Source of the DNA: an uncultured Mycoplasma sp.
GTDB lineage: Bacteria; Bacillota_I; Bacilli_A; Mycoplasmatales; Metamycoplasmataceae
Assembly (NCBI GenBank): GCA_947039955.1
Contig: CAMRAC010000005.1
Location: 1 to 64,000, forward strand
Direction of reading: 5' to 3'
DNA length: 64,000 nucleotides
The number at the start of each line of letters is the position of its first letter. Position 1 is the stretch's first letter. Below the pieces are notes generated by a model, which was not told where the DNA came from, made no database searches, and was given only the letters and a program-made list of their open reading frames with translations. Shown here one piece after another: positions 4,315 through 7,682 of the stretch. The position numbers were made by a program, and so were the translations under genes.

Positions 4315-5223
4315 GTGGGAATTTATTTAGGTATTTTTACAATATTCACCATTCTAACCATTATTTTCTTTAATAAGTTTTTCAATAAAATTTTTAACAA
4401 CTATTATATTATGGCTATTTCAGGAATAGTATTCTTCATTTACTTTTGAATTGTAAGATATCATGAAGATGTTACAAACCTCATCACTGGAAACTCATTT
4501 GTTAACGGAGAGTTCAATGGACAATTAGATAATAATAATAGCAATATTAAAATTTCAAAAGTTTTCCTATTGGACTTATGTCCTTTTGTGGCAATGTGCT
4601 TTTCTTTCTTATTAACTTTTGATAGAGAAAGAAATATTTTAAAAGTTATTTCACCACTTGCATTATTTGGAGGTTGTGTAACTATTTTCGGACAAATTAT
4701 GTGAGAAGATATTGGGAATCAAAATAACTTCCTGCCAATATCAAACGGATGAGATTTTATCTTTGGAAATGAAGCTTACTTTTCAATGCACTTTTATTCT
4801 ATAGCCATATCACTAATTTTATTAATGAATTCAAAAGGGTTTGGTTGAAAGGCATTAATTGGATCAGTCGCTTTCCCTCTAGGATATTTTTCATATATCC
4901 TTATTTTTACAACACAATTCGGCGTAACAAAAAATGCAACAGGGTTAGTTGTAGGAGATTGAGAGTATGGGCAATATCATGCGGTTTGAGAAATTTTTGG
5001 AAAACTACCTTTTCCATATGTAACCGTTGTTTGTTATAGTCTTGTTGCTGTATATATTTTTACAACTATCTTTTTAAGAAATGTTTTAATATTTGATAAT
5101 AAATGAAAGCATTCAGAGATGGTTGTATTTCCAAGAATTTCAATACTTATAAGAAGACAATTTAATAGGCTTAAACTATTTTTAAAGAAAAATATATCTA
5201 TCCCTATTTCAAAACTATTGTAA
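4315..5223 (+). CDS. Polytopic membrane protein of unknown function
   Basis: 302 residues, continuous when about seven TGA codons are read as Trp. A GTG start is chosen because a strong AAGGGGG lies 4 bases upstream and an in-frame stop precedes it; the overlapping ATG at 4313 is out of frame. At least seven hydrophobic segments are visible, with a polar NGEFNGQLDNNNSN loop near residue 70 and a basic C-terminus (RRQFNRLKLFLKK). It contains a conserved-looking HFYSIAIS helix. I do not recognise it with certainty; it resembles the uncharacterised mollicute membrane DUF families. It stands alone ahead of the glycosyltransferase cluster. Confidence 0.8.
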
Positions 5224-5361: not shown

Positions 5362-5718
5362 ATGTTTATGAAAACAAACAAAATTTTAACATTTTCAATA
5401 ATTGGAATAATCTTATCAATAATTTTATTTTCTTTATTTGTAACAATTGTAGCAGGAACAACCATATACTTATTAGATTCAGTTCAAGGATTTTGAATAC
5501 CAACATTAATTTCTTTATCTATTATTTTTGGCGTAAGTTTTGTTATTAATATTATTTTATACTCATTCATTATTTTAAATAAAAATGATTTAGTTAAAAA
5601 TACCGAAAATGAATTTAGCTTTTGAATAGCTTCATTTATTTTTTGAATATTGCCAGCACTTGCTTGATTTATTTTTATACTAATTTACAATAAGGAAAAA
5701 AATATAAATGCCATCTAA
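5362..5718 (+). CDS. Small membrane protein, first of a three-gene overlapping cluster
   Basis: 118 residues with four TGA-encoded Trp. Three to four transmembrane helices are evident (about residues 8-32, 43-70 and 85-108) separated by a short charged loop, NKNDLVKNTENEF. The start could equally be the ATG at 5368; no clear Shine-Dalgarno is visible. Its stop lies 11 bases inside the next gene, which implies coupled translation with the membrane protein at 5708 and the glycosyltransferase at 6087. No recognised family. Confidence 0.7.
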
Positions 5719-6094
5719 CAAAATTTCAAAAAAAGAGAATAAAAACTCTTGCATTTTCTTAATTGTAAATATTGGTCTATATACATCTATTTTAAATATA
5801 CTACTTTTTAGTTTTCTCTTTTTTGTTAGCATACAATTATTTATTGACCCGCTAAACTTCATTTTGTGAATAAGTATATTAGGAACTTTTATTATTATAT
5901 TATTGATATCAATAATAGTGATATTATTATTATTTTCTAAAATAATAATAAACAATGAATTGTTTATCAAAAAAAACCAAAAGCAAGAAAAAAAATATTT
6001 TATTGCAGCAATACTTTTCTTTTTTTTCAATAGTTTAATATCTTTTTCTATGTTTAAAAAATTATTAATCACCGAAGAGGAAGCATATGAGTAA
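5708..6094 (+). CDS. Small membrane protein, second of the cluster
   Basis: 128 residues; hydrophilic lysine-rich start, then helices around residues 17-40, 46-75 and 98-115, with a basic loop (KKNQKQEKK) between the last two. One TGA-encoded Trp. It overlaps the upstream gene by 11 bases and the downstream glycosyltransferase by 8 bases. An open frame on the opposite strand (5680-6120) covers the same stretch but has low-complexity content and no supporting context. Function unknown; likely partner of the anchored enzyme encoded next. Confidence 0.7.
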
Positions 6095-7682
6095 AATAAA
6101 ATCAAAATTTCTTGTTCCAACTATTTTATCCTTGGTAGCCGTTCCTTCGATTGCTCTATGTGGTTATGCCTTTTCACAGTTAATAATAGAAAAAGTAACA
6201 ACTTACCAAACAGATAACAAAATAGTTGGTTGAACAAGAGAAGATGAAGCAGCTAATCAAAATAGATATATACAAGATGCATTAGAAAAAGATGCTCATG
6301 AAAAAGCAAAAACAAACTCGGTATTATTTTATAAAATAACCAACATAGGTGTTATCATAAGATTTTCTTTTGTAGCACACATGATGAAAATATTAGAATT
6401 GAATCCCAATAAAATAATTAGAGTTGTATCAATAGACAAACTTGATTTAGATTATGATTATTTTAAACAATATCCAAATGTAGAATTTGAAATCATATCA
6501 GAAACTGATTTAGAAGCTACAGCAACTTATGCATTTAATTTAGATTATTTACAATTAATTTATGATGAATATGGAACAGATAAAAAAGTAGATGCCTATT
6601 TTGATGATACAACATATATGCATAAAATAGAGTTATATCTAAGAGGATTTAATAGTCCACTTGATAAATCAATCATATATAATGAATTTATTTTGTTAGG
6701 AAAATTAGAAAGTATAAACTTTTTTGCAGATGGTACAAAATCTGTAGAATACTTTACTCAATTTTTCAAACATGCCTTCCTACTTTCTAACAACTTATAT
6801 AATTCAACTGACAAAAACTATACCAATGCAAAACTTATTAGAGAAGATGTCAAAGCGGATAAGATGAGTCAAAGTGAATTTATAAAAAACAATAATGCTC
6901 TTTTATTTTTAACATCTTTTTTAACTATTGACTTTACTCAGCCAAATAAAAATAAATACTTTCTCCCAACAACGGATTTTATCCCTGAAATAAATAGACT
7001 AGAAGATAATGATAATTATAAAGATGGGGAAAATGATTTTTTCTCACCTTACAATTCACAAAACTTAAATATTATTTCTTTTATAAAAAACTTGGATCAA
7101 TTAGCTGTTAGAAAAATTTTAAAAATTGATAAAAGCTTTGATCCGGAATATTATATTAAACAAATGAATAATAATAAAAATTATATTTATTCAGGTGGAC
7201 CGATGTCTACTCAAGATAGGATAGATTCAAATATTCGAGTTCTTGTATCTATTAAAAATTATGCAAACAAACATCACCCAACTGAAAGTGATAAGATTAT
7301 TGTTTGATTCAAAGGACACCCTAGAGATAATGACATTTTAGAAAAACTAACAAGTAGACTTCAAGTTTTATATCCTGGAGATGATGGTTCTTGAATTAGA
7401 ATACTTGATAACAAAGTTCCTTTTGAATTTTATTCAGTTTATAATGTGTTCGATTCTGATCCAATAAATAACAAAGAAGTATTTTTATTTTCAACATATT
7501 CAACTTTAGTTATGATGATGTATGCAAACGGACAAGAAAGTGATATTTCAAAAATAATTATTTACCCAACCCCAGTTTATTCAATAGAAAAAATAAGAGC
7601 TTTGTATGGATATGATTCTAAAATATTTTCTAAAAATAAAATGATCACTTTAGAAGATTTTGAAAAAGAAAATTCACAATAA
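6087..7682 (+). CDS. Membrane-anchored GT80-type sialyltransferase-like glycosyltransferase
   Basis: 531 residues, two TGA-encoded Trp. A basic N-terminus (MSKIKSKF) and one hydrophobic helix (about 8-30) predict an N-in, C-out anchor; the lone Cys25 lacks a canonical lipobox. The rest aligns by eye with the Pasteurella PM0188/PmST1 family (GT80): an FFADGT segment at 212-217 in place of the acceptor-side Asp-Asp-Gly motif, a YSGGP segment near 370 where GT80 has FTGTT, the WFKGHPRD motif at 407-414 with the CMP-binding His411, a Ser-rich FSTYST at 468-473 in place of the family's SS pair, and a similar C-terminal tail. In GT80 the substrate is CMP-sialic acid. The first Asp of Asp-Asp-Gly is Ala here. 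Family assignment is by motif memory, without a database search. Confidence 0.65.

What the first reader, a model, noticed from the sequence alone, without database searches (positions are those of the whole stretch)
6087..7682. A GT80-type sialyltransferase-like enzyme in a mollicute
The sequence shows, in family order, an Asp-Gly motif, SGG segment, the strongly diagnostic WFKGHP with CMP-binding His411, a Ser-rich motif and a matching C-terminal region. From knowledge of GT80 (PmST1/PM0188 of Pasteurella and Photobacterium enzymes) the KGHP motif is the nucleotide-binding signature. Sialyltransferases are not part of the normal mollicute repertoire as I know it; sialic-acid capping of the surface would be immune mimicry. 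Sequence similarity is by eye, so remote.
Basis: partly seen in the sequence, partly recalled or inferred. Interest (0 to 1): 0.72.

Follow-up and report, generated by a model that had tools for sequence, protein, structure and literature searches.

The report
Surface sialyltransferase-like enzyme in mycoplasma
An uncultured mycoplasma, a wall-less bacterium not known to build sialic-acid coats, carries an anchored, outward-facing protein with the fold and active-site set of bacterial sialyltransferases, and it belongs to a large, unnamed family of mycoplasma surface proteins, so it may add host-derived sialic acid to surfaces outside the cell.

Summary
Window 6087-7682 (+, code 4) encodes a 531-aa protein with the claimed motifs, under purifying selection. 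It has no direct Pfam, NCBIfam or PDB sequence match. Its AlphaFold model (pLDDT 81, pTM 0.83) matches GT80 sialyltransferase structures first (Z 17-20), GT38 next (Z 14), other GT-B enzymes lower. Profile-profile alignment to GT80 gives E 1.7e-6, with D215, H411 and E447 on PmST1 D141, H311 and E338. Those residues plus K409 and S472-T473 are invariant in 16 mollicute homologues. In 9 of 16 genomes the family's loci match the GT38 model PF07388; PF11477 (GT80) is not met. So it works like GT80/GT38 but is a separate family. All members have an N-terminal signal or anchor, seven with a lipobox, so the enzyme should face outward. No CMP-sialate synthetase was found in about 40 genomes, so any such donor must come from outside. 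A second, larger subfamily of lipoproteins with the same catalytic set (38 of 247 genomes, often several copies) was found; it too has no Pfam or NCBIfam name. Donor, acceptor and activity are untested; immune mimicry is conjecture.

The parts
6087..7682 (+). exported GT80/GT38-like glycosyltransferase, 531 aa, code 4
6108..6158 (+). N-terminal membrane anchor / signal segment (aa 8-24), three K/R before it, no D/E: catalytic domain predicted outside
   Evidence: hydropathy; the model is disordered at 1-44
6606..6608 (+). invariant Asp D174; hhalign places it next to PmST1 H112/S113
6729..6734 (+). D215-G216, proposed catalytic base (PmST1 D141; MhPST E153)
   Evidence: PMC5517516
7311..7322 (+). 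K409-G-H411-P412, cytosine and phosphate contacts, leaving-group His (PmST1 H311; MhPST K289/H291)
7419..7427 (+). P445-F-E447, ribose-binding Glu (PmST1 E338; MhPST E323)
7500..7505 (+). S472-T473, phosphate-binding pair (PmST1 S355-S356; MhPST S339-T340)
   Evidence: invariant; hhalign misplaces this stretch by a few columns
5708..6094 (+). small membrane protein, 128 aa, overlapping the GT start by 8 bases; a counterpart precedes the GT in the four closest species
5362..5718 (+). small membrane protein, 118 aa, also kept upstream of the GT in the four closest species

Best explanation
It is a membrane-anchored, outward-facing, inverting GT-B glycosyltransferase of the bacterial sialyltransferase type. 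D215 would deprotonate the acceptor hydroxyl, K409/H411/E447/S472-T473 would hold CMP and stabilise the leaving phosphate, and an alpha-linked nonulosonate, most likely N-acetylneuraminic acid, would be transferred from CMP-sialate. Because the cell appears not to make CMP-sialate and the domain sits outside, the donor would be scavenged from the host. The acceptor would be the cell's own lipoproteins or glycolipids, or nearby host glycans. Shown here: the ORF, the fold match, invariance of the catalytic set, export signals across the family, and no detectable CMP-sialate synthetase. Inferred: donor, acceptor, linkage and biological role.
For: Foldseek ranks 1-21 are all GT80, E 6e-11 to 4e-8, then GT38 at 3e-6, then generic GT-B. 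VIA-align Z is 16.8-20.2 for GT80, 13.3-13.9 for GT38, at most 12.7 for others; 339-357 residues aligned for GT80. HHalign to GT80: E 1.7e-6, score 55.6 against a maximum of 25.3 in 100 column shuffles. A lower-quality model of a distant homologue (L021) also ranks GT80 then GT38 first. PF07388 matches the same loci in 9 of 16 genomes. The catalytic set is invariant and corresponds to the residues that act in MhPST and PmST1 (PMC5517516). All 17 members carry an N-terminal hydrophobic segment, seven with a lipobox Cys; two have a C-terminal TM helix. No CMP-sialate synthetase over cut-off except two IspD/TarI-like cytidylyltransferases judged by eye. Scavenging of host CMP-Neu5Ac by a bacterium that cannot make it is known in gonococcus (PMC11078009).
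Against: No activity evidence. PF11477 is not met, and PF07388 is not met by the window protein itself. PmST1 W270 has no obvious counterpart. Free extracellular CMP-sialate is probably scarce in most niches. No glycan-synthesis operon surrounds the gene. The genome is a 95%-complete assembly, so a missing gene is possible, though the absence repeats in about 40 genomes. Fold and catalytic residues do not fix the donor sugar.
Confidence: 0.5

Rival explanations
1. CMP-dependent sialidase or trans-sialidase: it runs mainly in reverse, taking sialic acid from host glycans with CMP and passing it to other acceptors or releasing it, so that little external CMP-sialate is needed.
For: PmST1 and Pd2,6ST have sialidase and trans-sialidase activity mainly through reverse sialylation (PMC10795189). 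The genomes lack a BNR_2 sialidase, and several, G000 included, carry NanE, in G000 beside a PTS.
Against: It needs CMP outside the cell; NanE beside a PTS fits ManNAc use without sialic acid; NanA was not searched for genome-wide.
Confidence: 0.15
2. A GT-B glycosyltransferase with the same architecture but another donor (CMP-Kdo or another nonulosonate, or a UDP/CDP sugar).
For: The family is separate from GT80 and GT38 by profile threshold; the acceptor and sugar-contact regions are not conserved with PmST1.
Against: K409, H411, E447 and S472-T473 are the CMP-contact set; absence of PF02348 members over cut-off speaks against other CMP sugars made in the cell.
Confidence: 0.15
3. It is (one of) the unidentified enzymes that glycosylate mycoplasma surface proteins with hexoses cleaved from outside oligosaccharides, without nucleotide sugars.
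For: That activity is at the cell surface and its gene is unknown (PMC4657876, PMC12453214); this family is predicted extracellular and has a second, widespread subfamily.
Against: The fold and residues are those of a nucleotide-sugar enzyme; presence of the family in the hexosylating species M. genitalium and JCVI-Syn3A was not tested.
Confidence: 0.08
4. A catalytically dead relative used as a sialic-acid- or nucleotide-binding adhesin.
For: The wider family consists of surface lipoproteins of fast-diverging sequence, with several copies in some genomes.
Against: All proposed catalytic residues are invariant or nearly so at 16-30% identity, which binding alone would not demand.
Confidence: 0.07

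Closest known systems
GT80 sialyltransferases (PmST1/PM0188, Pd2,6ST, JT-ISH-224; Pfam PF11477)
   Same: GT-B fold, best structural match by a margin; same order of base Asp, KGHP, P/S-x-E and Ser pair; a lipoprotein-type leader is also seen in JT-ISH-224 (MKNFLLLTLILLTAC).
   Different: 11-15% identity in structural alignments, PF11477 not met, about 120 residues longer than PmST1, no clear W270 counterpart, ADG where GT80 has DDG, extra invariant D174, ST in place of SS, wall-less host without detectable CMP-sialate synthesis.
GT38 polysialyltransferases (MhPST; Pfam PF07388)
   Same: Second-best structures; KxHP, Glu and S-T pair correspond to K289/H291, E323, S339/T340; PF07388 matches relatives at the same loci.
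   Different: PF07388 not met by the window protein; GT38 acts in capsule synthesis inside the cell; no capsule locus here.
GT52 lipooligosaccharide sialyltransferase Lst of Neisseria
   Same: Precedent for sialylation with scavenged host CMP-Neu5Ac by a bacterium unable to make it.
   Different: No GT52 structure among the listed rows; [quoted passage not shown]
Mycoplasma extracellular hexosylation system (PMC4657876, PMC12453214)
   Same: Glycosylation outside the cell by scavenging host sugars in mollicutes.
   Different: Hexoses from oligosaccharides, no nucleotide sugar, enzyme unknown.

Membership tests
GT80 | GT-B fold closest to PmST1 class | tested here: met
GT80 | Catalytic Asp of the D/E-D/E-G motif (PmST1 D141) | tested here: met
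   D215 aligned with D141, invariant; the preceding residue is mostly A/S/G/T, not D/E
GT80 | KGHP with leaving-group His (H311) | tested here: met
   H411 aligned, invariant
GT80 | Ribose-binding Glu (E338) | tested here: met
   E447 aligned, invariant
GT80 | Phosphate-binding Ser pair (S355-S356) | tested here: inconclusive
   S472-T473 invariant, but hhalign does not put them in the same columns
GT80 | Match to PF11477 over the curated cut-off | tested here: not met
GT80 | CMP-Neu5Ac-dependent sialyl transfer to galactosides | not testable with these tools
   needs an enzyme assay
GT38 | Match to PF07388 over the curated cut-off | tested here: not met
   not by the window protein; met in three genomes at the homologous locus
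GT38 | E153/K289/H291/E323/S339-T340 set | tested here: met
   D215 for E153, K409, H411, E447, S472-T473
GT52 | Match to the Lst fold or Pfam model | tested here: inconclusive
   no Pfam match; not among the listed structures

The most novel reading that the evidence does not exclude
Mollicutes have a large family of lipoprotein or membrane-anchored ecto-sialyltransferases that work outside the cell on host-derived CMP-sialate (or by CMP-dependent trans-sialylation), remodelling the sialic acid of their own or the host's surface without any sialate-activation pathway of their own.
Probability: 0.4. Interest if true: 0.85.

Novelty: new variant of a known kind. Interest (0 to 1): 0.62.

Why it matters
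Mollicutes are thought to have few glycosyltransferases, and the enzymes behind their extracellular glycosylation are unknown (PMC12453214). A widespread, unnamed family of surface lipoproteins with an intact sialyltransferase-type active site gives a concrete, testable candidate for glycan remodelling on the surface of mycoplasmas, and, if active on sialic acid, a route to host-like surface sugars without a biosynthetic pathway.

Tried and rejected
Single-sequence searches of Pfam, NCBIfam and PDB, and the profiles A1 and A2 against PDB sequences, gave nothing; the weak Rv2179c-like and quinolinate synthase matches are chance-level. PF11477 over 197 genomes found only a sub-threshold match in another genome. 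PF02348 hits were read as GalU or IspD/TarI-like by sequence, not CMP-sialate synthetase. BNR_2 sialidase: none in 19 genomes. NanE next to a PTS exists in G000, but no NanA lies beside it, so sialate catabolism is not shown. No conserved glycan operon around the homologues. tblastn of the window protein and of one second-subfamily member against plasmids and phages: no match. Viral fold library: no sialyltransferase-type match; chiefly unnamed proteins and generic glycosyltransferases at weak scores. GT52 is absent from the listed structural rows; that is not evidence against it. 'lgt sialyltransferase' Mbov_0099 in PMC11263210 appears only as a table name; lgt normally denotes prolipoprotein diacylglyceryl transferase, so I did not follow it.

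Full report
Observation. Window 6087-7682 (+) is one open frame of 531 aa under code 4, with three TGA read as Trp. It starts 8 bases inside a 128-aa membrane-protein frame and is followed by a TruB-like gene (by eye). Searches of Pfam, NCBIfam and PDB with the single sequence find nothing convincing.

Homologues. A search of 197 related genomes finds homologues in seven of the twelve genomes of the same genus (G000 included) and two copies in a genome of another family. A profile search of the order adds more, some as partial matches in a third family, f6; most of these lie in complete frames. Three near relatives in named records are 'uncultured Mycoplasma sp.' MAGs. dN/dS is 0.09 (L002/L003), 0.21 (window/L003) and 0.11 (L021/L022), so the gene is kept for function. 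In the tree, the f6 rows part from the rest with full support; several long branches make finer placements unsure.

Invariant residues. In 16 homologues only 13 columns are invariant: Y82, D174, D215, G216, P321, G370, K409, H411, P412, P445, E447, S472, T473. MhPST (GT38) uses E153 as base, K289 for cytosine, H291 for phosphate, E323 for ribose and S339-T340 for phosphate, and PmST1 uses D141 and H311 in the same way (PMC5517516).

Fold. The AlphaFold2 model from nine homologues has pLDDT 80.9 and pTM 0.83; residues 1-44 are of low confidence. Foldseek against PDB puts 21 GT80 chains first (E 6e-11 to 4e-8), then the GT38 polysialyltransferase (3e-6), then generic GT-B enzymes at 1e-4 or weaker. 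VIA-align agrees: Z 16.8-20.2 for GT80, 13.3-13.9 for GT38, at most 12.7 for the rest. A model of the distant homologue L021 is weaker (pLDDT 63.6) but also ranks GT80 then GT38 first.

Sequence link. HHalign of the 16-row alignment with four GT80 sequences gives probability 90%, E 1.7e-6, score 55.6; 100 column-shuffled controls reach at most 25.3 and the reversed control 14.9. D215 falls on D141, H411 on H311, E447 on E338; the Ser pair is offset by a few columns. PF07388 (GT38) is passed by some f6 members and matches nine of 16 genomes at the family's own loci, but not the window protein. PF11477 (GT80) is passed by none. I therefore call it GT80/GT38-like and not a GT80 member.

Location. 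All 17 members scored have an N-terminal hydrophobic segment, and in 16 of them one or more K/R and no D/E precede it; L007 is read from a start inside its frame, so its leader is incomplete. Seven have a lipobox Cys, two (L021, L022) a C-terminal TM helix with a basic tail; L023 also matches lipoprotein signal models. The window protein has an anchor without a canonical lipobox. A GT80 enzyme, JT-ISH-224, has a lipoprotein-type leader too.

Donor. CMP-sialate synthetase (PF02348) was sought in 20 and then 25 genomes (a few shared): nothing over cut-off except two that read as IspD/TarI-like cytidylyltransferases. No BNR_2 sialidase was found. NanE is present in G000 beside a PTS. So if the enzyme uses CMP-sialate it must be scavenged, as gonococcus does (PMC11078009), or the enzyme runs as a CMP-dependent trans-sialidase, as PmST1 and Pd2,6ST can (PMC10795189).

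A second subfamily. A weak hit in G007 led to a 681-aa anchored protein with the same order of motifs. It has relatives in 38 of 247 mollicute genomes, up to four matches per genome, most in one genus, g3. Most of the 19 relatives examined have a lipoprotein-type leader (by eye). Across the 20, D273, G309, K509, H511, P512 and E550 are invariant, position 308 is D or E, and 589-591 are T/S. HHalign links it end to end with the first family (E 1.6e-9, score 84 against at most 24 in shuffles) and more weakly with GT80 (E 0.001, score 36.7 against 21). It has no Pfam or NCBIfam name for its catalytic part in the members tested. I know of no report that links these lipoproteins to sialyltransferases, and none of the full-text searches showed one; the library is open-access only.

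Verdict. The protein is best described as a member of a separate, exported GT-B family of mollicutes with a GT80/GT38-type active site. Belonging to that structural group I put near 0.85; sialic acid as the natural substrate near 0.5; immune mimicry is conjecture.

Noticed in passing
L063 3674-5719 (-), G007:C18; relatives L065-L083: Second, larger subfamily of mollicute lipoproteins with the same D/E-G, KxHP, E and T/S motifs; 38 of 247 genomes, multicopy in one genus, no Pfam or NCBIfam name for the catalytic part.
   Followed up: partly
L063 2783-3292 (-): Frame matching ADP-ribosyltransferase exoenzyme PF03496 (E 1.2e-15), next to the second-subfamily gene in G007.
   Followed up: no
window 4315-5223 (+): DUF5378 membrane protein (PF17349) lies before the GT here but a like protein lies after it in L032 and L033: a local rearrangement around a conserved gene set.
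   Followed up: no
window 5362-6094 (+): Two overlapping small membrane-protein frames just upstream of the GT, kept in the four closest species; one small membrane protein also sits beside the GT in L005, L006 and L008.
   Followed up: partly
L008 1048-3117 (-): The G009 homologue is a 689-aa lipoprotein with about 150 extra residues at its C-terminus of unknown kind.
   Followed up: no
L054 5879-8858 (-), G000:C1: NanE beside a PTS transporter in the window's genome, without NanA beside it: possible ManNAc use.
   Followed up: partly
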